Part shown: positions 13,014 through 25,785 of the stretch, one piece after another
Layout: each line of letters starts with the position of its first letter
How positions within the stretch are numbered: the stretch's first letter is position 1
Origin: Clostridiales bacterium
GTDB taxonomy: Bacteria; Bacillota; Clostridia; Saccharofermentanales; Saccharofermentanaceae
Length of the DNA stretch: 64,000 bases
Direction of reading: 5' to 3'
Assembly (NCBI GenBank): GCA_017451265.1
Contig: JAFSPU010000007.1
Coordinates: 124,001 to 188,000 of the forward strand
Made by a program: the position numbers and the translations under genes
Notes under the pieces: model-generated
The model's input: the letters and a program-made list of their open reading frames with translations, nothing else
The model's database searches: none
What the model was told of the DNA's origin: nothing

Positions 13014-13772
13014 ATGGCTATTAAGCAAGGCATGTGTAAGAACTGCGGATCTCTTATCGTTTTCGATGAGAGAGACGATCAGTGCGAGTGCGTATTTTGT
13101 CACTGCATTTTCCCCTCTGAAGAGGCGGTAGAGATATATAACAATCCCGAGGGAAGGCAGTTCCCTAACGAGAAGTACGAGCCCAGCACAAGCGCTCAGA
13201 AGCATAACGTAACCAGAGTGTATTCATCTGAGAGCCTCGAGAAGTCCATTGCGAGGGAAGAGCTGCGCAAGGCTAACTCCGAGGGCCCCAAGACGAACGA
13301 GTTCGAGGTGCAGGCCAAGGACGTTAAGGCTCCCAAGAAGCTTGTTATCGGCGTGATCGCAGGTGCGGTTGCCATCGTAGGCATCGTAATCGCGATCTGC
13401 TACCCCATGTATAAGACGAGGATCGCGCTTCGTGATTCTATCGAAGCCGACATCGCTCCGGTGTTCGAGGGCATTGCTGACGTAGCGCTCACATCGGACG
13501 CAGAAGGTAATTATTTTGATGGTTTCTCCGTATTCGGACAGACGTGCCAGTATCTTAATGCGGCAACAGAAGATGAATTAAGTGAAGAGGACGCGAGAGC
13601 CATTTTCGAAAACTATTGTGCCTTAAGGGCAGAGAAGATCGCTGACGGCAGTGCGGATACATTCGACGGCGTGCAGATCAAGATCTACAGCCGCGGCGGA
13701 TACTACACTGTTACGGGGGCGAACGGCGAGGTGAACGCAGTGTTCACTGAAGATGCAGAAGCGGAGGGTTAA
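13014..13772 (+). CDS. Zinc-ribbon membrane protein of unknown function
   Basis: A 252-residue protein. The N-terminus forms a four-cysteine ribbon (CKNCGS near residue 8 and CVFCHC near residue 27). A charged linker follows, then one membrane helix (about residues 105-128), then an external C-terminal domain of about 120 residues with no family I recognise. Similar ribbon-plus-helix proteins are common in Clostridia. Start ATG 13014 was taken in preference to the TTG at 13011. Its last 20 bases overlap the first possible start of rpoD. Confidence 0.75.
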
Positions 13773-15540
13773 GATTACGGCTACTAAGAAAGCAACGGCA
13801 GACAAGAAGACTGCCGCCAAGAAGACGACAACTACAACTAAGAAGACCACTTCCAAGACAGCTGCTCCCGCTAAGAAGACAGCAGCTAAGACATCTTCCA
13901 AGAAGGCTGAGCCCGCAAAGAAGACAGCGTCCAAGAGCGCTTCCAAGACTGCGGCCAAGGCCCCTGCCAAGAAGACAGCAGCAAAGGCACCCGCCAAGTC
14001 TGCTGCTAAGGCTCCTGCAAAGAAGACAACAGCTAAGACTGCTTCCAAGAGCACGGCCAAGAAGGCTGAGCCCGCTAAGAAGGCAGCATCCAAGACAACT
14101 AAGACAACCAAGACAGCGGCTAAGGCACCTTCCAAGAGCACAGCTAAGAAGGCTGAGCCCGCAAAGAAGACAGCTGCTAAGGCTTCTTCCAAGGCTGCAG
14201 TTAAGCCCGCTGCAAAGACTGCTTCTAAGACGACAGCTAAGACAGCAGCAAAGACAACCAAGACTACAAAAAAGGCTGAGCCCGTAAAGAAGGCAGAGCC
14301 TGCTAAGAAGACAGCTTCCAAGGTCTCCAAGACAGAGGCTAAGGCTGAGGCTAAGCCTGCAGCAAAGAAAGCACAGTCTTCTGATAAAAAAGAAACAAAG
14401 AGCCCCAAGGGTTCTAAGAAGAAGGCAGAAGTGAAGGAAACAGAAGAGAAAGAGCAGATCGTCAATGAGCAGGCTAACGCCGAGCTTTCAGAGGATCTGA
14501 AGAATATACTTGCCCAGCTGAAGCTTATGGCTTCCGGCAAGACCATCTCAGAGGGTGAGTTCGATCTTCTCATGGTAGAGAAGAATGTATCTCCCGAGAC
14601 TACAGAGCTCCTTATCCAGAAGCTCGAGTCCATGAAGATCAAGATCGTGCCCGACACAGATGAAGATGATGATGACACAGATGATGTAACGACGACAGGT
14701 TCCGAAGAAATCAATGTAGACGACTCCGTCCGTATGTATCTCAAGGAGATCGGTAAGATCCCGCTGCTTAATGCAGAGCAGGAAAGAGAGCTTGCCCAGA
14801 GAATGCAGGACGGCGATAAGGATGCCAAGGATACTCTCGTAGAGTCCAACCTGCGTCTCGTCGTATCCATTGCGAAGAAGTACATGAACAGAGGCTTGAG
14901 CCTGCTTGACCTTATCCAGGAAGGAAACATCGGTCTTATCAAGGCTGTTGATAAGTTCGATTATTCCAAGGGATTCAAGTTCTCCACATACGCCACATGG
15001 TGGATCAGACAGGCTATCACGAGAGCCATCGCTGACCAGGCTAGAACGATCAGAATCCCTGTACACATGGTTGAGACTATCAACAAGCTCACACGTGTTC
15101 AGCGCCAGCTCATTCAGGACCTCGGAAGAGAGCCTACCATCGATGAGCTCGCAGAGAAGATGAACATGCCTGTTGATAAGATCCGTGATATCCAGAGGAT
15201 CTCCCAGGATCCCGTATCCATCGACAAGCCTGTCGGTGAGGAGGAGGATTCACACCTCGTTGACTTCATTCCTTCCGATGAGTACGTATCACCTGATGAT
15301 GAAGTAAGCAGAGAGCTTCTTAAGGAAGACTTGATCAAGGTCCTCGATCTTCTTACAGAGCGTGAGGCTAAGGTTATCAGACTCAGATTCGGTCTTGATG
15401 ACGACAAGCAGAGAACACTCGAGGAAGTAGGAAGAAGCCTCGGAGTTACAAGAGAGAGAATCAGACAGATTGAGGCTAAGTCCATAAGAAAGCTCGGAAG
15501 ATCTTCTTATGCTAAGCGCCTTGAGGGTTATACAGACTAA
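13753..15540 (+). CDS. rpoD: Primary RNA polymerase sigma factor RpoD with histone-H1-like tail
   Basis: A 595-residue vegetative sigma factor. Residues about 240-310 resemble region 1.1. Region 1.2 begins near [11 protein letters not shown]. Region 2 shows [14 protein letters not shown] and the -10 recognition segment [13 protein letters not shown], and region 4 shows the helix-turn-helix near [12 protein letters not shown]. The first 220 or so residues are almost only Lys, Ala, Thr, Ser and Pro in AKK/PAKK repeats, like the tail of histone H1. The ATG at 13753 overlaps the previous gene. An SD-like GGAGGG at 13763-13768 sits just before an ATT codon at 13774, so translation might start there. 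The genes of a possible Rnf complex follow 9 bases downstream. Confidence 0.93.
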
Positions 15541-15549
15541 GGTCAGCCT

Positions 15550-17043
15550 ATGTCCGTAGGCAGACGCAGTTCTTCTTTCTATAAAGGTTTCAACTCAGAC
15601 AACGCTTTGGATTTTTCAAAGCGTTCGTCTTTTGACCGCGATGTTATGCTCGAGAGGGTCTACCCCGGAAGGCTGATCCTCCCGATGCTCCAGCATCACG
15701 GAGATGAGTGCATCCCTAATGTTAAGATCGGCGAGACCGTCGCCATCGGTCAGTGTGTCGGCGCTCCGGCTCCGGGTACTATGGCCGTGCCTGTGCATGC
15801 CGGAATCTCCGGTACCGTAACTGCGATCAGACCCATTGTGCTGCCTGACGGAAGGACCAGCATGTCCGTCTTCATCGAAGGTGACAGGAAGAGAACCTAC
15901 CACCCCACGGTGCGCCCCAGAAACAACGTTAACGTCAGCGCTGCCACAGTTATGGGAATCGTGCGTGACGCGGGCATCGTAGGCATGGGCGGTGAGGGAA
16001 TCCCCGCCATCGTTAAGATCAACAGAGCCAAGAAGTTTAAGGTAAAGGAGTTGCTCGTAAACTGCCTTCAGAGTGAGCCCTTCGCTGACTCGGATTACCT
16101 CATAATTGACGAGTACGCAGACCACGTGATCATGGGTGCAGTTGCACTCGCGGGTTCTTGCGGCGTTAAGATAATAAACATCCTCATCTCCAAGGACAGA
16201 AAGAAAGAGATAACCGCGCTTCGAAGCGCCATGGAGCGAAGCTTCTCCATGTATTCGGGCTACGCTTTTAATTTCATTTTCCTTAAGACGAGATTCCCGC
16301 AGGGCTACTACAGGATGGTGGCGCGCGCGGTCTACGGCGTGAACCTTGAGGAGGGCGAGTGTCTGGAGAACAGGTGCAGGGCGGTCATGTTTAACTGTTC
16401 CACTGTTTACTCGTGCTGGAATGCCATCGCCGAGAGTATGCCGCTTGTTTCAAGGACTGTCAGCATCAGCACGGAAGACGGGCTTCTGCGTAATGTAGTG
16501 GCGCCCATCGGCACGCCTGTCTCGGAACTTCTGGATAACGTAAGCGGCTTTAAGGGCTCGTCCAGGATAATCGTCTGGGGTAACGCGCTCACGGGCCTTC
16601 AGATAGATAACCCGGAGACGACGCCTATCATCAAGACCACCTCGGGCATCTGCCTTATCACCGACGTGCAGGACATAAACTCGCCGTGCATAAGCTGCGG
16701 CAAGTGCTCCGATGTCTGTCCGGTAAGCATTGAGCCCGATAAACTTTATATGCTCATTAAAAACGGAAGGGAGAAGGACGCTGAGCGCCTCGGTGCAGGC
16801 AAGTGCATCGGCTGCGGCGCGTGCTCTTATATCTGCCCTTCATATATCAAACTCTCGGGAGTGGTGGCTGACTTCGCTGCTTTGAAGCGCAGGAAGGGAA
16901 GCTACCCGTATTCGGCTGTGGGAGACAGTGAGTGGATCGACGACCTCGCGCTGCTGTCGGCTGACCCCGTAAGCTCCGCCGAGAGCCGTAAGCCCGTGTC
17001 AGACACGATCACACTTCCTTTTGAAGGATGGGAGACAGAATGA
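15550..17043 (+). CDS. rnfC: RnfC-like electron-transport subunit
   Basis: A 497-residue protein with RnfC architecture: an N-terminal barrel-sandwich domain (MLQHHGDECIPNVKIGETV, with a PVHAGISGTV motif), a Rossmann-like NADH/FMN domain (GIVGMGGEGIPAIVK; the canonical motif is GGAGFP), and two 4Fe-4S motifs near residues 385 and 423 (CISCGKCSDVCP and CIGCGACSYICP). In canonical Rnf it accepts electrons from or gives them to NAD at the cytoplasmic face. The sequence departs from canonical RnfC at the NGAECEP segment, which reads NCLQSEP. It is coupled to rnfD by an ATGA overlap. Confidence 0.85.
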   Translation: MSVGRRSSSFYKGFNSDNALDFSKRSSFDRDVMLERVYPGRLILPMLQHHGDECIPNVKIGETVAIGQCVGAPAPGTMAVPVHAGISGTVTAIRPIVLPDGRTSMSVFIEGDRKRTYHPTVRPRNNVNVSAATVMGIVRDAGIVGMGGEGIPAIVKINRAKKFKVKELLVNCLQSEPFADSDYLIIDEYADHVIMGAVALAGSCGVKIINILISKDRKKEITALRSAMERSFSMYSGYAFNFIFLKTRFPQGYYRMVARAVYGVNLEEGECLENRCRAVMFNCSTVYSCWNAIAESMPLVSRTVSISTEDGLLRNVVAPIGTPVSELLDNVSGFKGSSRIIVWGNALTGLQIDNPETTPIIKTTSGICLITDVQDINSPCISCGKCSDVCPVSIEPDKLYMLIKNGREKDAERLGAGKCIGCGACSYICPSYIKLSGVVADFAALKRRKGSYPYSAVGDSEWIDDLALLSADPVSSAESRKPVSDTITLPFEGWETE

Positions 17044-17990
17044 CGGAGAGAGTAAAGGCGCCTTTTATACACACGGAGAATAACGACGCATACTCGGCTG
17101 CGGCGCATCTCGTTTCGCTCGTGCCTGCAGTGGCCGTGGGCGTGGTTTTCTACGGACTGCGCGCGGCTGTGCTGATCGCATTCTGCTCACTTCTCTTTGC
17201 GCTTTCTGATGACGTGTGCTCACGTATAAGACACATGAGCCGCGGAAGTATACTTAACCCGCTTTTTAACGGCGCTGTGATCGCGCTGCTGCTGCCGCCT
17301 GACACACCGCTTTATGTGGCTGCGACCGGCGTGCTGTTTGCGTCTGTGATCGTAAGGCAGCTCTCGGGAGGAAGGGGTTCGTCTTTCCTGAATGCTGCTG
17401 CCGCGGGACGCCTTTTTATAAGGATCTTATTCCCGCTTAACGAGGCCGCACTCGCCATCCCCGGAGAGAACAGGCTTTCACTTACGAGTCTGCTTACAGG
17501 GCCGCGTACGCCGGTGCCTGCCGACCTTTCGCAGTACTATTTCGCTGAGCTTTTCATGGGACGCTTCCCGTCGTTTATCGGCACCTCATGCACCGTGATG
17601 CTTCTGGCGGGTTTGATCTACCTGCTTGCCAAGAAGGTGCTCAAGCCGTACCTGCCCGCGTGCTACCTCGGCATGCTCACGCTTTTGCTCCTCATCAAGG
17701 ATATTTACATGGATACGGCGCAGACGGGCATGTTCCTGCTCACGTCAGGCATACTCTTCACGGCTTCGTATCTGATCTTCGACGACGACACGGTCAAGTC
17801 TTTCGGCCCCGTGGCTGTCACGCAGGCTTTCCTGTGCGCGGGACTTACGTTCCTCGCGTCATTTAAGCTCACGGGCATCGATCTGCTCGTGATCCCCGTG
17901 CTCATTACCGGCATCCTCACGGATGTGCTGGACTTCGCATTTAAAGTAATCAGGGCAACAGCGGAGGAGGACTCAAGTGTTAAGTCGTGA
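17040..17990 (+). CDS. rnfD: RnfD-like membrane subunit
   Basis: A 316-residue polytopic protein. Recognisable RnfD segments are SGGRGSSFLNAAAAGRLF (family: GGLGxNxFNPAxxGRxF), FIGTSCTVMLLAGLIYLL (family: GETSALALLIGG) and the late SGILFTASYLIFDDDTV (family: SGGLLFGAFFMATDPVT). The flavin-attachment motif SGATP is not present; the aligned place reads TGPRTP (residues 153-158), so covalent FMN is doubtful. The start was chosen at the ATGA overlap with rnfC. It overlaps the following gene by 14 bases. Confidence 0.78.
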   Translation: MTERVKAPFIHTENNDAYSAAAHLVSLVPAVAVGVVFYGLRAAVLIAFCSLLFALSDDVCSRIRHMSRGSILNPLFNGAVIALLLPPDTPLYVAATGVLFASVIVRQLSGGRGSSFLNAAAAGRLFIRILFPLNEAALAIPGENRLSLTSLLTGPRTPVPADLSQYYFAELFMGRFPSFIGTSCTVMLLAGLIYLLAKKVLKPYLPACYLGMLTLLLLIKDIYMDTAQTGMFLLTSGILFTASYLIFDDDTVKSFGPVAVTQAFLCAGLTFLASFKLTGIDLLVIPVLITGILTDVLDFAFKVIRATAEEDSSVKS

Positions 17991-19281
17991 TAATGTCGTC
18001 CGCTTTACTGTAGAAGCTATACTCTTCTTCGTGCTCAGCGCACTTTTGGTGGTGGCAGGCATTCTTGCCACCAACAGCAGTGAGTATACGCGTGTGCAGT
18101 CGGAGCTTGCGGTGGATTTCGCAGGTGTTCTGCCCGCGGATTCATATGTGCCGGTACAAAGCGCGCTCGTGGAGGGCTACGGCATCACGAATGTTTATGA
18201 AGGCATCGGCGAGGACGGCAACTCGAACGGCTACGTGGTGGAGATAGAGGTGACGGACCACCAGACGGGAAACCCGCTGAACCTTTTGATCGGAATCGAC
18301 TACAATACCGCCGCGCTGACGGGACTTGAGAGAGCTCCCGACGACCAGGGCCTGTCCGCCATCACTGACGAAGATATAAGCGTGATCCTTGCGCAGACGC
18401 TCGGCCAGCAGATCCCTGTGGCTTACGGCGTGCAGAGGCAGGATACGGACGACAACGCAGAGCAGCAGGTGCTGACGGGACTTAACGACGGTATCTACTA
18501 TGCGCAGACGCTGTCGGCGGACCGCTCCGGCTACATCGACTATGTGGAGATGAGCATCGAGAACGGCGTCATCACCATGGTGCAGTGGGATGCGTTTAAC
18601 GTCGACATGAATATCAAGAACAGAAGAGAGTCGTCGCTGGACGGCGTGTATGAGGTTTCCGGTCTTAACTGGGCTTCGCAGTCCTACATCCTCTGCCACG
18701 CGCTGATGGACGTGCAGAACCCCGACCTGCTTGCCATGAAGTCCGACGGCACCACTGACATCATAGACGGCGTTACGGTTAACATCAGAACCTTCGTGGA
18801 GCTGTGCGTGGAGTGCATCGAGAACTCCAGGGCCGAGTTTGATAAGGACATGTACTTTGCAGGCATGAGGGAGATCGTGGATAACCTCTTCGAGGGTGAC
18901 TTCGAGTCCTTGGGCGTCATGAATGACGACGGGTTCATCGTATTCACATTTGACGGCTACCCCGGCGTTTTCGCACTGCCTGACGGGGGACAGATGAATG
19001 TAAGACAGAAGATCACGGGTGACCTCGCGGACTACTCCGACTTCGATTCCACTGCGGCTGACGGCGGCGAGCAGATGACTACCACCGACAGGGGAAATGA
19101 GGACGGCATCCGCACGGAGGACAGCGCTTACGATGCAGACAGTATCGACGGTATCCCGATGGCGGAGATCAACACGTATATAGACGGCATCGAGGGTGAC
19201 ATCATGAGCACAGCTGACATCGTCACCGCGATCAACACCACATATAGATTCTTGAAAGACTACCTTAACTGGATGGCGTAA
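17977..19281 (+). CDS. RnfG-like protein with an inserted second FMN-bind-like domain
   Basis: A 434-residue protein, about twice the usual RnfG. It has one N-terminal membrane anchor (residues 11-31), then an RnfG-like outer domain (about 60-130, with NLLIGIDYNTAALTGLERAP). A second unit at about 166-285 has the FMN-bind pattern: DGIYYAQ, an IENGVITMVQWD strand and D261..DGVT (264-267) where the family has SGAT. The last 30 residues align without gaps to the RnfG C-terminus (IDGIEGD... for IDAISGA...), but SGAT reads EGDI, so the usual flavin threonine is lost. The start is GTG with GGAGGAGG upstream. Domain assignment is from pattern reading, not a search. Confidence 0.65.
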   Translation: MLSRDNVVRFTVEAILFFVLSALLVVAGILATNSSEYTRVQSELAVDFAGVLPADSYVPVQSALVEGYGITNVYEGIGEDGNSNGYVVEIEVTDHQTGNPLNLLIGIDYNTAALTGLERAPDDQGLSAITDEDISVILAQTLGQQIPVAYGVQRQDTDDNAEQQVLTGLNDGIYYAQTLSADRSGYIDYVEMSIENGVITMVQWDAFNVDMNIKNRRESSLDGVYEVSGLNWASQSYILCHALMDVQNPDLLAMKSDGTTDIIDGVTVNIRTFVELCVECIENSRAEFDKDMYFAGMREIVDNLFEGDFESLGVMNDDGFIVFTFDGYPGVFALPDGGQMNVRQKITGDLADYSDFDSTAADGGEQMTTTDRGNEDGIRTEDSAYDADSIDGIPMAEINTYIDGIEGDIMSTADIVTAINTTYRFLKDYLNWMA

Positions 19282-19282
19282 T

Positions 19283-20512
19283 ATGAGCATGATCGACACA
19301 TCGGACAAGACACTTAACAAGTCGCCCTTCAATGACCTGAAGGACCTTGATAATATCCCCGAGAACCCCTTCGAGGGTGTCGGTCTTGATCAGGAGCGCG
19401 AGGTAAGCCGCTTCTCCACCAGGTCATGTATCTTCACGGCTTTCATCATGATCTCGTTAAGCTTTATGCTGCCGGTGTATTCGGGCAGTATGAGTTCTTT
19501 CGGCATCTCGTGCCTCTGGGCACTCGGAGCGGCGCTTGTGTATGTGCTGTTTTGGTCATGCACCATGAGGTTCTTCGAAAGCCCCGACATGATGCCGGTC
19601 TCCATCGTTTTGAACCTGATTCCCGCGGTGGCTTTAAGCTTCCTGCCTTTTGTAAGTCTGCCGCTCGAGGGCCTCGTTTTCTTAGGCGCGGGTGTAACTG
19701 CTTTAACGCTTGAGGCTTCTGACAGCGCGCCGCACAAGAAGGTGCGCAAAGATGCTTCCGGGTTCACGGGCATCGACTTTTTAAGCGGCGAGGTGGTTAA
19801 GTATACCGAGTTCGTGAAGGCGGGTGCAGGGGAGATCGTGCTGCCGTTTATCTGTGCGCTTTTCTCTTCGTGCTTAGGCGTCGGTATTACTGAGCTTCTG
19901 CGCCGTTACACGCACCTGCAGGGCAAGGGTTTACGCGTTATCATCAGCGCGCTGGTGCTCGTGCTTTTCTCTGTCGTTATCAGTGCGGCGGGCGGCAAGG
20001 ATGTACTGTTCTCATCGGAGGAGTTAAGCGATGCGTTCACGCTGCCCCGTAACACTTATAAGCACTTAAGGAGCTTCATATTAAGAAGGACACGCTTCTT
20101 CGTAAGTATCGCGCTCGTCGGCGCGGGGTGTCTGATCGCTGACTCTGTTAATGAGTTGCTCACCCTTGGGCTGCCGTTCATGAAGCATATACTGTCGGCG
20201 CTTTTAGTCTTCGCCTTCGCATTCGCGCGCGGCAGGCAGTCAAAGCACAGGATACAGTTTGCCACGGAGCTCGCGGTGATACTCGCAGTGTGCGTGACGA
20301 GAGTGCATTCCATCTATGAGTTCGTGCTCGTGACGGTGCTCGCCACAGCGGTGGATGTGCTGATCACGTCGATGATGTATACGCGTAACAGAAGGCTCAT
20401 CATGTCGGTGAGAAGCCCGTATATAGACGGCATGCCGCTGGCGCTGCTGTCCGCGGCCATGATCTACATGGTGATGGAAGTGGTTCTGTGTTACTGGGGG
20501 ATAGTTTTGTGA
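19283..20512 (+). CDS. Polytopic membrane protein, possible RnfE-RnfA-like fusion
   Basis: A 409-residue protein with a 45-residue charged N-terminus followed by about ten to twelve hydrophobic segments. No family is obvious. Its length is close to RnfE plus RnfA. The C-terminal segment IDGMPLALLSAAM (381-393) resembles the RnfA ending GLPIALITAGLM, and the region 104-145 resembles the middle of RnfE. The cysteine motifs that bind the intramembrane 2Fe-2S cluster in RnfA/RnfE (LGxCP and NC) are absent: there is no Cys-Pro at all. It follows the RnfG-like gene by one base and ends the cluster. The RnfEA link is an inference from weak similarity. Confidence 0.5.
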   Translation: MSMIDTSDKTLNKSPFNDLKDLDNIPENPFEGVGLDQEREVSRFSTRSCIFTAFIMISLSFMLPVYSGSMSSFGISCLWALGAALVYVLFWSCTMRFFESPDMMPVSIVLNLIPAVALSFLPFVSLPLEGLVFLGAGVTALTLEASDSAPHKKVRKDASGFTGIDFLSGEVVKYTEFVKAGAGEIVLPFICALFSSCLGVGITELLRRYTHLQGKGLRVIISALVLVLFSVVISAAGGKDVLFSSEELSDAFTLPRNTYKHLRSFILRRTRFFVSIALVGAGCLIADSVNELLTLGLPFMKHILSALLVFAFAFARGRQSKHRIQFATELAVILAVCVTRVHSIYEFVLVTVLATAVDVLITSMMYTRNRRLIMSVRSPYIDGMPLALLSAAMIYMVMEVVLCYWGIVL

Positions 20513-21491: not shown

Positions 21492-21776
21492 ATGAAAGAC
21501 TTAGAGAAAAACAATATTGATCTTGAAAAGTTGGAAGAAGTTGTTGGCGGAACACGTTCTGAGGAATTGGAACTTATCGAATTTGTAAAGACTCATACAT
21601 GGTGCACTACTGAGAGTGATGTATGGTATTGGCTTAAGAAAGAATCCGGTTTGCAGTTCAGAAGTCTTCATACTTCGACCTGGGGCTTGAATGAGTTCGA
21701 GCTCATGGACGGGACCAAACTTAATCATCGGGAGTTAATGACGCTGTTGAGGGAACGTATTTCTGATGATCTATGA
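21492..21776 (+). CDS. Small double-glycine leader peptide-like protein
   Basis: A 94-residue product. The N-terminal 20 residues look like a double-glycine export leader: acidic/hydrophobic LEKLEEVVGG followed by T, with the cleavage-type Gly-Gly at 19-20. The remaining 74 residues contain one Cys (WCTT), several Trp and end in a charged helix. The leader resembles that of the gene at 30712 (LDELEAVQGGT). Such leaders mark bacteriocin-like or signalling peptides cut by C39 proteases. No dedicated exporter is adjacent. AAGGAGGAC precedes the ATG, and a terminator follows. Confidence 0.65.
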   Translation: MKDLEKNNIDLEKLEEVVGGTRSEELELIEFVKTHTWCTTESDVWYWLKKESGLQFRSLHTSTWGLNEFELMDGTKLNHRELMTLLRERISDDL

Positions 21777-22978: not shown

Positions 22979-25597
22979 TTAGTTATACGAGTACTCGTTC
23001 CAATTATCGTCGTCCCAGATATTGCCTGATACAGTAAGCCAGTATCCGTTGGGATCGACGAATTGTGTTCCGTGATTGAAATCTACATTCCATTCATCTG
23101 ACATGTATACCAGTTGTTCGCCGGTTTTGTCGTACTCTACTATCGGATTGCCTGTGAAGGGGTTTACGGGATTATCAATAACTCCATTGAGACAGATGAA
23201 AGGAGTGTCAGCGTTAGTCATAAAGTCGTATGATACAGAGAAGCCTTGGCTGCCAAAGTCTTTTACCAAAAGTACCGGGTTAACCCATTCGGCATCAAAT
23301 TCTGGATTGCTTACAAGAAGATCATCAAACTGTTCCAGGCCAAATCCGTGATCGGCTACGATTATGATACGTGAGTTGTCGTATAAGTTGTTAGCACGAA
23401 GATAATCAAACCATCTGCCTAAACATATGCAGGCTGACATATTGCACTCATATTGACTGTAATCTAAAAAGTTTGTATCCATGTGCATGGTCACACCGTC
23501 AACTACAAAACGATCTTCATGCTCTGCATCATATTCGGTATTGTCGATCATAGAACCGGGTGTGTAATCAGGTTCATTCATGAGGCAGACCTCGTGTGTA
23601 AGAGAGTTGGTTATCATGCAGAAACAATTCTGAGAATCGTCACAAGTTGTTGTAATGTCACATAAAGCGTTAATAGCCGCGTATTCCTGTGCATTGGTCT
23701 CGAATAGTCCAATCTGATAATGAGGGGTAGTAGCGACATAGGTATTATCTACATAACCGTTATAGTAATGATTAATATAGTTGTAAGATCCATCGGAATA
23801 AACGATGGGTTGTAAGATATAAGGCATAGTCTTCATTAATCCGAAACAGAATAGATTGCGGTTAAGTCTGGTTTCAATCTCTTCACCTGCATCAGTCAAC
23901 AGTTCGATTTGTTCGTTAAACATTCCTGAAAGCCTGAACGCATTGATATTCTCGTTATCATCATAGATGCTGACATCAGGTATCCATGAGTAATTTGCAT
24001 ATGCAGGATCACCGACTGACACGTTCCATCCGTTATCTGCAAAGATAGTAGGGAGTACTCTTAATGATTCATTGTGTTTATCAACGAGAGGTTCATCTGC
24101 GCGCAAGTTAATATTTGCGGGAGTATATTCGTATCCTCCGTAAAGAGCTGGAGCGGCAGTGTTGGTGTGCCCTCCGAAAGAGACTGTATTAGGGTAATAG
24201 ATGAATCCGTCAAACTGAGCGGCAACATCCGGTCGTTCATTAAAAATATATGGTATGTATGCACCAATCATACGGTCCATCATAATCAGGATAACATTTT
24301 GACCTGAAGTAGTCAGAGGTATGTTGATATCTTCTGTGTCGGTGTTGAAGTCGTATGTGCTGAGGCTGGAGACGCTCACAATCATAACGACATTACTTAT
24401 AGATAAAAATAGACAGGTTAATAACAGTACTGCTGTAAGGGTTTTGGTTATTTTCCTCAGTTTAAAAACTAAACCAAAGGCGAAGACTGCAAAGAGTATA
24501 TCTGCTCCAAGATTGATTAGAATCTTATTCTGTGAAAATTCCATAGGATAGTCATATATCAGTTTCCTGGAAAGCAGGCCGAAATTCTCATTAAAAGCAA
24601 TATAATTCAGAACCGCAGTTAATGCGCATATGGGCATAAGGTATTCCATGATTTTCCCGAATCTTTCTTTTGTCAGATAGATAAAAAGCGGAATCCAGAT
24701 TAAAAACATTCCGATAGCAATTAGCATGCTGCTTACAAGATAGAGAGTCGGATTATGCGGCGTTGAACTGAATGTGTTGATAAGTTCAGTAGGGTTTTCC
24801 GATATTACATCAGCCGGTATCATGATACCTGTAAGCACTGTCAGAACACCGCAGGATAATGCAATAAGACGTCCGTCAGTTTTGCTCTTTGAACGGGCAG
24901 ATGCAGGCTTTGTGTGTTTCTTGCTGATAGTGCAGCCGACGATGTTTTTTACTAGAGAAAAGACATTATTTAAAGTCCAATAGAAAACCAGACCTGAAGG
25001 GGAATCATACAGTAGAAATAAGAAAACCATCGCAATGAGTATGAGCTTCAGCTTCTCTTTTAGAGGTTCTTTGCCGGCGTAGATAAAGCTGGATATAAGA
25101 TTAACTGCGGTCATGAGGATAGGCAGTGCATTTATGCGAATATTGCCTATAGGTATTAGAGCGTCAGGAAGCCCCAGATCATGTATGGGTCCCAGAGAAA
25201 CTCCATGTAACATCTTCAATTCTGAAAGGAAATAGTATGCTGCCATGAAGAATGGTATCTGGAGCATAAGGGAAGTGAGGCCTTTGACAGTGTTAAGAGG
25301 ACTGTAATTTGCTTCCCTGTAATAAGCCTGAAGCATCATTACTTTCTCATCGCCCGAAAAAGACTTCTTGATGCGGTCTGCCACTGAACGCACTGAGGCA
25401 TCCTTTTCACGAGCCTGATTCTGCAGTTCATCCGCTCTGATGTACAAGGGAAGGGCAAGGATATTAACGACAAGACTTAATACAAGGATAGAAAAACCGC
25501 AGTTACCAGTGAATTTGTAGGCATAGAAGTATATAAACTCGAACACGAGCCTAATAGGTTCTATGAGTAACAAATATAGGTAATTAATCAAATTCAT
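22979..25597 (-). CDS. YidC/Oxa1-like domain fused to an alkaline-phosphatase-superfamily (sulfatase/LtaS-like) domain
   Basis: An 872-residue protein. Residues 1-215 follow YidC/Oxa1: a first core helix (SILVLSLVVNILALPL), a coiled cytoplasmic loop, SPLNTVKGLTSLMLQIPFF, and a final SGLVFYWTLNNVFSL. The groove arginine of insertases is replaced by Asn 45. Five to six further membrane helices follow (about 240-415). From about residue 435 comes an alkaline-phosphatase-fold domain: NVILIMMDRM, GGHTNTAAPALYGG (possible nucleophile Thr) and RIIIVADHGFG (metal site). The start at 25597 is preferred to the longer frame from 25753 because AGGAC precedes it and the YidC helix begins there. Base composition is AT-richer than the neighbours. 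It may modify an envelope polymer; the substrate is unknown. Confidence 0.82.
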   Translation of the reverse strand: MNLINYLYLLLIEPIRLVFEFIYFYAYKFTGNCGFSILVLSLVVNILALPLYIRADELQNQAREKDASVRSVADRIKKSFSGDEKVMMLQAYYREANYSPLNTVKGLTSLMLQIPFFMAAYYFLSELKMLHGVSLGPIHDLGLPDALIPIGNIRINALPILMTAVNLISSFIYAGKEPLKEKLKLILIAMVFLFLLYDSPSGLVFYWTLNNVFSLVKNIVGCTISKKHTKPASARSKSKTDGRLIALSCGVLTVLTGIMIPADVISENPTELINTFSSTPHNPTLYLVSSMLIAIGMFLIWIPLFIYLTKERFGKIMEYLMPICALTAVLNYIAFNENFGLLSRKLIYDYPMEFSQNKILINLGADILFAVFAFGLVFKLRKITKTLTAVLLLTCLFLSISNVVMIVSVSSLSTYDFNTDTEDINIPLTTSGQNVILIMMDRMIGAYIPYIFNERPDVAAQFDGFIYYPNTVSFGGHTNTAAPALYGGYEYTPANINLRADEPLVDKHNESLRVLPTIFADNGWNVSVGDPAYANYSWIPDVSIYDDNENINAFRLSGMFNEQIELLTDAGEEIETRLNRNLFCFGLMKTMPYILQPIVYSDGSYNYINHYYNGYVDNTYVATTPHYQIGLFETNAQEYAAINALCDITTTCDDSQNCFCMITNSLTHEVCLMNEPDYTPGSMIDNTEYDAEHEDRFVVDGVTMHMDTNFLDYSQYECNMSACICLGRWFDYLRANNLYDNSRIIIVADHGFGLEQFDDLLVSNPEFDAEWVNPVLLVKDFGSQGFSVSYDFMTNADTPFICLNGVIDNPVNPFTGNPIVEYDKTGEQLVYMSDEWNVDFNHGTQFVDPNGYWLTVSGNIWDDDNWNEYSYN

Positions 25598-25684
25598 TAA
25601 TAAGTCCTGTTGCTTATACAAAAGAATAAATATCTTTAAATAAACATTGAAAAGTATACACCATATCATTATTGACGGCGAGTA

Positions 25685-25714
25685 AACAAAAATCCCGGCA
25701 CGGGGGCGCCGGGA
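25685..25714 (-). terminator. Minus-strand terminator after the AarF-like gene
   Basis: On the minus strand the arms ATCCCGGC and GCCGGGAT are followed by TTTTTG. It lies about 70 bases after the stop of the AarF-like gene and upstream of the YidC-fusion start, separating the two minus-strand units. Confidence 0.8.
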
Positions 25715-25785
25715 TCTCTGTGAGTAGTATAGGATCAGCTTCACCTCTGTCATGGAAGTGCTCCAGCCTGGAACCGGTACTCATA

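What the first reader, a model, noticed from the sequence alone, without database searches (positions are those of the whole stretch)
15550..20512. Divergent Rnf-like electron-transfer cluster without RnfB
RnfC and RnfD are clear, but the usual C-D-G-E-A-B set is reduced to four genes. The RnfG-like protein is doubled in size, the fourth protein lacks the RnfA/RnfE cysteine motifs, no rnfB follows (a tRNA does), and the RnfD SGATP flavin motif reads TGPRTP. The cluster directly follows rpoD. Together these point to a remodelled membrane electron-transfer or ion pump complex that differs from canonical Rnf and Nqr.
Basis: partly seen in the sequence, partly recalled or inferred. Interest (0 to 1): 0.82.

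Follow-up and report, generated by a model that had tools for sequence, protein, structure and literature searches.

The report
Stripped-down Rnf complex without RnfB
A family of gut and rumen bacteria carries a second, heavily altered copy of the Rnf membrane electron-transfer complex, kept under selection beside a sigma-factor gene although most of its usual membrane redox cofactor sites are gone, which points to a changed and still unknown job.

Summary
Confirmed and extended. In Saccharofermentans-type rumen/gut Clostridia, window 15550-20512 encodes RnfC, RnfD, an RnfG split by an inserted FMN_bind-like domain (not a simple doubling), and a 409-aa protein that is probably an RnfE-RnfA fusion; no rnfB. 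The order Z-rpoD-C-D-G-EA recurs in 78 named loci (8, on short contigs, lack Z) and in other genera of the family; the RnfG-like gene is in 113 of 115 family genomes. Selection is purifying. RnfC keeps all eight [4Fe-4S] cysteines and its FMN loop (77 of 77); RnfD mostly keeps its riboflavin ligands. The covalent-FMN sites of RnfD and RnfG, conserved RnfA/E cluster cysteines, and RnfB are gone; 82 of 85 genus genomes lack ApbE. Sister genera hold this cluster and canonical RnfA/E (28 of 30), so it is a paralogue; the window's genus lost the canonical copy (PF02508 0 of 85). It is thus neither a ferredoxin:NAD+ Rnf nor an Nqr, but a separate branch, complementary to Nqr in what it kept. The mechanism (one-way electron transfer from a cytoplasmic donor, or redox gating) is inferred.

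The parts
13014..13772 (+). [not shown]
   Evidence: A9 alignment; found in 174 of 188 order genomes, also those without this cluster; no rpoD or rnf hit beside it in 4 of 4 outgroup loci looked at
13753..15540 (+). rpoD-type sigma factor, upstream gene of the presumed operon
   Evidence: rpoD-to-RnfC gap median 19 bases in 74 loci
15550..17043 (+). RnfC-like, FMN plus two [4Fe-4S] head
   Evidence: TIGR01945 over cut-off; PDB RnfC 7zc6_C E 2.6e-86 with profile A7
15982..15999 (+). RnfC FMN loop GMGGEG (canonical GLGGAA); Glu replaces Ala in 77 of 77
16060..16080 (+). RnfC NCLQSEP (canonical NAAECEP): Gln at the NuoF-Glu95-like position in 77 of 77
   Evidence: E95Q in NuoF: PMC11677225 passage
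16687..16836 (+). two CxxCxxCxxxC motifs, all eight Cys kept in 77 of 77
17028..17990 (+). RnfD-like; riboflavin ligands N122 and D252 kept, covalent-FMN Thr lost
   Evidence: PF03116; 9eri_D E 1.5e-47 with profile A8
17496..17513 (+). TGPRTP, near the position of the lost covalent-FMN Thr
   Evidence: alignments
17977..19281 (+). RnfG-like with inserted domain; both flavinylation sites changed
18478..18855 (+). inserted FMN_bind-like domain (residues 168-293), best conserved part of RnfG
18766..18777 (+). DGVT of the insert, at the place of SGAT in 2kzx
19183..19206 (+). C-terminal RnfG segment where SGATITS stands in L164; Thr lost
19283..20512 (+). probable RnfE-RnfA fusion without conserved [2Fe-2S] cysteines

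Best explanation
The locus is an ancient RnfB-less paralogue of Rnf (subunits C, D, G with an insert, probable fused E-A), lying directly behind rpoD and probably transcribed with it. Shown from sequence: the cytoplasmic head RnfC keeps the residues for FMN and two [4Fe-4S] clusters, and RnfD mostly keeps its riboflavin ligands; the covalent FMN sites of RnfD and RnfG, RnfB, and conserved cysteines for the RnfA/E cluster are gone. Inferred: electrons enter at RnfC from a cytoplasmic donor (NADH with a retuned pocket, or another carrier), go through the two clusters to riboflavin in RnfD and towards the conserved outer insert domain of RnfG, where a non-covalent cofactor or substrate would have to take over. 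It would be a one-way, outward electron-transfer device, not a ferredoxin:NAD+ loop and not a pump driven by a buried [2Fe-2S] cluster.
For: Conserved gene order and short gaps; dN/dS 0.035-0.10 against the nearest relative L052. RnfC 8 Cys and FMN-loop glycines 77/77; RnfD N 66/77, D 74/77, Arg next to FMN_D 71/77. Insert column identity 0.73 against 0.46 for the rest of RnfG: constraint is highest in the cytoplasmic head and the outer insert. Two other RnfB-less clusters keep an RnfG flavin motif: L164 (ApbE-like frame, C, D, G with two inserts and SGATITS, E, A) and L264 (C-D-G with SGAT-E-A plus an FMN_bind lipoprotein), which fits an electron-export ancestry. The canonical path (PMC11889175, passages) needs RnfB, AE1, FMN_G and riboflavin; mutating the B8 or AE1 cysteines or the FMN_G or riboflavin residues abolished activity there.
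Against: No FMN_D anchor (T in 1 of 77), and the Glu185 position of C. tetanomorphum RnfD is replaced in 77 of 77, so the step from riboflavin to the outside has no known carrier. ApbE is missing in 82 of 85 genus genomes. RnfC changes at three pocket positions may mean NADH no longer binds. Ion pumping is not excluded: one paper places the Na+ site at RnfD residues that are mostly kept here. No biochemical data exist. The two comparison clusters may not be close to its ancestors: L164 sits on a very long branch, its RnfD also lacks the ATP motif, and L264 was not in the tree.
Confidence: 0.42

Rival explanations
1. Redox-gated sensor or transporter: RnfC and riboflavin-RnfD sense the cytoplasmic redox state, and the RnfD, RnfE-A and RnfG parts respond by changing shape (or by moving an ion), with no electrons leaving the membrane.
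For: Outer redox sites lost while the cytoplasmic head is kept; outer insert strongly conserved; RnfD residues that one paper links to Na+ are mostly kept; cluster lies behind rpoD in the family.
Confidence: 0.28
2. Outer flavins are present but held without ApbE (non-covalent FMN in RnfD and in the RnfG insert), so an electron exporter of the L264 kind still works.
For: Insert keeps Gly and Thr of the motif (G 77/79, T 77/79); RnfD Arg 71/77.
Against: Motif D-x-x-[ST]-G-A-[ST] (PMC12052999, passage) changed at the [ST] in most and at the Ala in 78 of 79; C-terminal RnfG site without trace of SGAT; FMN_D Thr lost.
Confidence: 0.17
3. Quinone reductase: electrons leave at RnfD to a quinone, as in Nqr.
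For: NqrB, the RnfD homologue, is where quinone binds in Nqr (PMC11889175, passage). 24 of 39 genus genomes have some UbiA-family match, 18 over the cut-off.
Against: 9 of 23 good-quality genus genomes have no UbiA-family (PF01040) match at E<=0.001, among them G001 at 100% completeness, which has the cluster.
Confidence: 0.05
4. Decaying remnant of Rnf without function.
For: Many cofactor sites lost; E-A protein evolves fast (mean column identity 32%).
Against: dN/dS 0.035-0.27 in all nine comparisons made; 113 of 115 family genomes keep the RnfG-like gene.
Confidence: 0.04
5. Ordinary Rnf completed by subunits encoded elsewhere.
For: None found; own assembly is incomplete.
Against: PF02508 0 of 85, RnfB over cut-off 0 of 39, ApbE 3 of 85 genus genomes.
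Confidence: 0.02

Closest known systems
Canonical Rnf (RnfCDGEAB)
   Same: Order C-D-G-E-A; RnfC cofactor motifs; RnfD family and riboflavin ligands
   Different: No RnfB, no covalent-FMN sites in D or G, no conserved RnfA/E cysteines, RnfG insert, E-A probably fused
Na+-Nqr
   Same: Proposed route in print: rnf duplication plus loss of rnfB (PMC4014512, passages)
   Different: Nqr lost the RnfC cofactors, gained NqrF and kept the membrane cofactors; here the RnfC cofactor motifs stay, no NqrF was seen in the operon, and the covalent flavin sites are lost
NQR/RNF-like systems of Meheust et al. 2021 (PMC8238504, passages)
   Same: Partial Rnf/Nqr set thought to work one way
   Different: Those are RnfD-NqrF fusions in flavinylation gene clusters; here RnfC is kept and ApbE is mostly absent
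PplA / CPE2226 / A3DHT5-type FMN_bind domains
   Same: Fold and sequence of the RnfG insert; PplA only a weak match
   Different: Here the domain sits inside RnfG and the SGAT of A3DHT5 reads DGVT
RnfB-less cluster of G373 (L264)
   Same: C-D-G-E-A without B, in a genome with a separate rnf cluster that has B (L265)
   Different: RnfG and RnfD flavin motifs present, E and A separate, FMN_bind domain on its own lipoprotein

Membership tests
Rnf | RnfB polyferredoxin subunit | tested here: not met
   None in the operon; 0 of 39 genus genomes over the TIGR01944 cut-off, 37 of 39 with weak matches mainly to the 4Fe-4S part
Rnf | RnfC with FMN loop and two [4Fe-4S] motifs | tested here: met
   77 of 77; TIGR01945 over cut-off
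Rnf | RnfC NAD(H) pocket as in canonical members | tested here: inconclusive
   Ala to Glu 77/77, Phe to Ile 71/77, Glu to Gln 77/77; the three PDB RnfC sequences have Ala, Phe and Glu there; binding itself not testable
Rnf | RnfD riboflavin ligands | tested here: met
   N 66/77, D 74/77; both kept in the window
Rnf | Covalent FMN Thr in RnfD | tested here: not met
   T in 1 of 77; window has Leu
Rnf | Flavinylation motif in RnfG | tested here: not met
   Pattern [ST]GA[ST] in 1 of 79, there in a linker rich in Thr/Ala/Pro
Rnf | RnfA/RnfE fold (PF02508) | tested here: inconclusive
   No PF02508 match; weak RnfA/RnfE HMM and fold support
Rnf | Cysteines of the RnfA/E [2Fe-2S] cluster | tested here: not met
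   No column has Cys in more than 52 of 79; the window's residue there is Ser
Rnf | Fd:NAD+ activity, ion pumping | not testable with these tools
   Needs biochemistry
Nqr | NqrF reductase subunit | tested here: inconclusive
   No such gene seen in the operon in the fetched loci; not searched genome-wide
Nqr | NqrA-type head without FMN/FeS motifs | tested here: not met
   Cysteines and loop kept
NQR/RNF-like (eLife 2021) | RnfD fused to an NqrF-type domain in a flavinylation cluster | tested here: not met
   RnfD 320 aa with PF03116 only; ApbE 3 of 85 genus genomes

The most novel reading that the evidence does not exclude
A separate branch of the Rnf/Nqr superfamily: after a duplication and loss of RnfB, the outcome opposite to Nqr was reached, with the cytoplasmic FeS/FMN head kept and the covalent membrane flavins and [2Fe-2S] cysteines lost. 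It would act as a family-wide transmembrane redox device without covalent flavins, reporting or passing cytoplasmic reducing power to the envelope. RnfB-less clusters with other cofactor sets (L164, L264) would show this as one of several one-way Rnf derivatives.
Probability: 0.5. Interest if true: 0.76.

Novelty: new variant of a known kind. Interest (0 to 1): 0.6.

Why it matters
Na+-Nqr is proposed to have arisen by duplication of rnf and loss of rnfB (PMC4014512, passages). This family shows what look like the same opening steps with the opposite result, in living bacteria that in sister genera still hold both copies. It offers a natural test of which Rnf cofactors are needed for which function. 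It also means that annotation calling these genes 'Rnf' would wrongly credit rumen Saccharofermentans relatives with ferredoxin:NAD+ energy conservation, which matters for hydrogen and energy budgets of the rumen (inference).

Tried and rejected

Quinone reductase: disfavoured. Decay: disfavoured.

TGPRTP as a new flavin motif: rejected, not conserved in alignment.

ApbE: the first 39 genus genomes gave 0; the fuller set of 115 family genomes gave 3 of 85 genus genomes. Of these, G122 has ApbE beside a membrane protein with two SGAT-like motifs; around the ApbE of G142 no SGAT-like protein was seen in 9.1 kb; G111 was not looked at.

Literature: seven searches listed no paper that describes this cluster in the open-licence library held; only listings and abstract starts were seen for most, and subscription papers are not held. 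Of the cited papers only passages were seen.

Rows left out of counts: L081 (RnfC and RnfD in one open frame) from the C and D counts; L077 (contig starts in G) has no C or D.
Full report
What is there. The window lies in an unnamed 1.96-Mb assembly (69.5% complete). Named relatives found through protein 3 are Saccharofermentans, Mageeibacillus, 'Ruminococcaceae' and 'Clostridiales' genomes, many from rumen and gut; the label 'Saccharofermentans-type' rests on those titles. The gene order is Z (13014-13772), rpoD (13753-15540), RnfC (15550-17043), RnfD (17028-17990), RnfG-like (17977-19281), E-A-like (19283-20512), then tRNA-Arg.

Conservation. In 20 of 20 fetched genus genomes C-D-G-E stand together; Z and rpoD were each recognised in 19 of 20. 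Of 78 named loci, all have G; 77 have C and D (in L081 as one open frame); 75 have rpoD and 70 have Z, and the 8 without Z lie on contigs of 5.3-8.2 kb. Protein 4 was found by HMM in 76 and by eye in the two most distant. Gaps: rpoD-C median 19 bases (74 pairs), C-D -4, D-G -4, G-E 3 (76 pairs each). Of six loci from four other genera of the family, all show Z, C and G in order; rpoD, D or E is unlabelled in one locus each, partly because overlapping long frames were dropped by my script. The RnfG-like profile hits 83 of 85 genus genomes, 30 of 30 in other family genera and, weakly, 10 of 73 outside the family. In a class sample of 341 genomes, 33 match; the 11 full-length matches are all in the window's genus, and the other 22 cover only the insert or an RnfG part (E<=1e-6; of these only L234 and L264 were looked at further).

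Selection. Against L052, dN/dS is 0.035 (C), 0.104 (D), 0.048 (G), 0.093 (E); against L053, 0.10-0.27 including Z. Synonymous sites are near saturation, so the ratios are rough.

E-A. AlphaFold model mean pLDDT 83.8, pTM 0.82. Evidence for RnfA in the C half: top two VIA-align rows, A5 profile against A. woodii RnfA E 0.029, RnfA HMM E 3.5e-4 for the window protein with set size 1 (0.018 in the smaller set). Evidence for RnfE in the N half comes from sister genera: matches around the conserved IREILG segment, E 1e-4 to 4e-4. Controls and weak points are under Tried and rejected. I call the fusion probable, not proven.

Cofactor sites. Counts use the window plus 76 loci (C, D) or 78 loci (G, E). 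RnfC: 8 Cys 77/77, GxGG glycines 77/77, Ala to Glu 77/77, Phe to Ile 71/77, Glu to Gln 77/77. In E. coli NuoF, E95Q raises ROS (review passage); that the Gln here is the equivalent position follows from the shared NxxxxEP motif and is my inference. RnfD: N123 and D249 of A. woodii, mapped through and two canonical references, are kept in 66 and 74 of 77; T156 in 1 of 77. RnfG: insert motif G 77/79, Val 78/79, Thr 77/79; the C-terminal site has no SGAT. The ApbE motif is D-x-x-[ST]-G-A-[ST]; an Ala-to-Val change alone lowered flavinylation to about half in the cited work, so the insert motif is weakened, not provably dead.

Paralogy. In the same order, 94 of 188 genomes have PF02508: 0 of 85 in the genus, 28 of 30 in other family genera, 66 of 73 outside the family. 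C-D-G-E-A-B operons stand in the five sister-genus genomes looked at, G157, G102, G100, G158 and G162 (RnfB of G158 is short, near a contig end), where the remodelled RnfG is also found. ApbE: 3 of 85 genus genomes, 29 of 30 in other family genera. In an RnfC tree of 35 rows the family's remodelled copies form one group (99/98) apart from the canonical ones (100/100); L164 joins them on a long branch (2.38), unsafe. Thus duplication or acquisition came first and loss of the canonical copy in the genus later; the C-terminal SGAT site is already lost in family genera that still have ApbE.

Comparison clusters. L164 (G181): C, D, G with two inserts and SGATITS, separate E and A, an ApbE-like reading frame upstream (recognised by eye); the same genome has a canonical G-E-A-B stretch at a contig end. 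L264 (G373): C-D-G-E-A plus an FMN_bind lipoprotein, no B, with three of four RnfA/E cysteines replaced by my reading; L265 of the same genome has C, D, G, A and B in order (an E between G and A was not listed there, its place being taken by an opposite frame in my listing). These make an electron-export ancestry plausible but do not prove it.

Mechanism. The published path runs ferredoxin, RnfB, AE1, FMN_G, FMN_D, riboflavin, RnfC, NAD+ (PMC11889175 and PMC9588780, passages). Here only the last part, riboflavin to RnfC, is left with its known ligands. The two papers differ on where Na+ crosses (RnfA/E or RnfD), so loss of the RnfA/E cysteines argues against a pump but does not exclude one. 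The highest constraint is in RnfC (mean column identity 60%) and in the RnfG insert (73%). I therefore favour one-way transfer from the cytoplasm, with redox gating as the main rival; both are inference.

Noticed in passing
window 22979-25753 (-): Long protein joining a YidC-type insertase domain (PF02096, E 1.5e-21) to a C-terminal part with a weak, sub-threshold sulfatase match.
   Followed up: partly
window 13753-15540: rpoD of the window's subclade has a long Lys/Ala/Thr-rich N-terminal extension (595 aa; 538-641 aa in several near relatives, about 350 aa in many others).
   Followed up: no
window 13014-13772: Z, no Pfam match, five invariant N-terminal Cys, is an order-wide orphan family (174 of 188 genomes); a TadA-like frame stands next to it in L260 and L262 by my reading.
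   Followed up: partly
window 21492-21776: 94-aa peptide with a VVGG double-glycine-like leader, possibly a secreted peptide precursor; no Pfam match.
   Followed up: no
L264 4600-9118: RnfB-less C-D-G-E-A cluster with RnfD and RnfG flavin motifs plus an FMN_bind lipoprotein, in a genome that also has an rnf cluster with rnfB.
   Followed up: partly
L234 6159-7715: 518-aa protein with one SGAT-bearing FMN_bind domain followed by three repeats of the insert-type domain without SGAT.
   Followed up: no
L081 6989-9406; L125 5905-8381: Frames that differ from the rest: RnfC and RnfD in one open frame in L081; RnfG shortened to 261 aa in L125.
   Followed up: no
L237 7730-9304: In G122, one of the three genus genomes with ApbE, the neighbouring frame is a membrane protein with two SGAT-like motifs, perhaps a separate flavinylated system.
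   Followed up: partly
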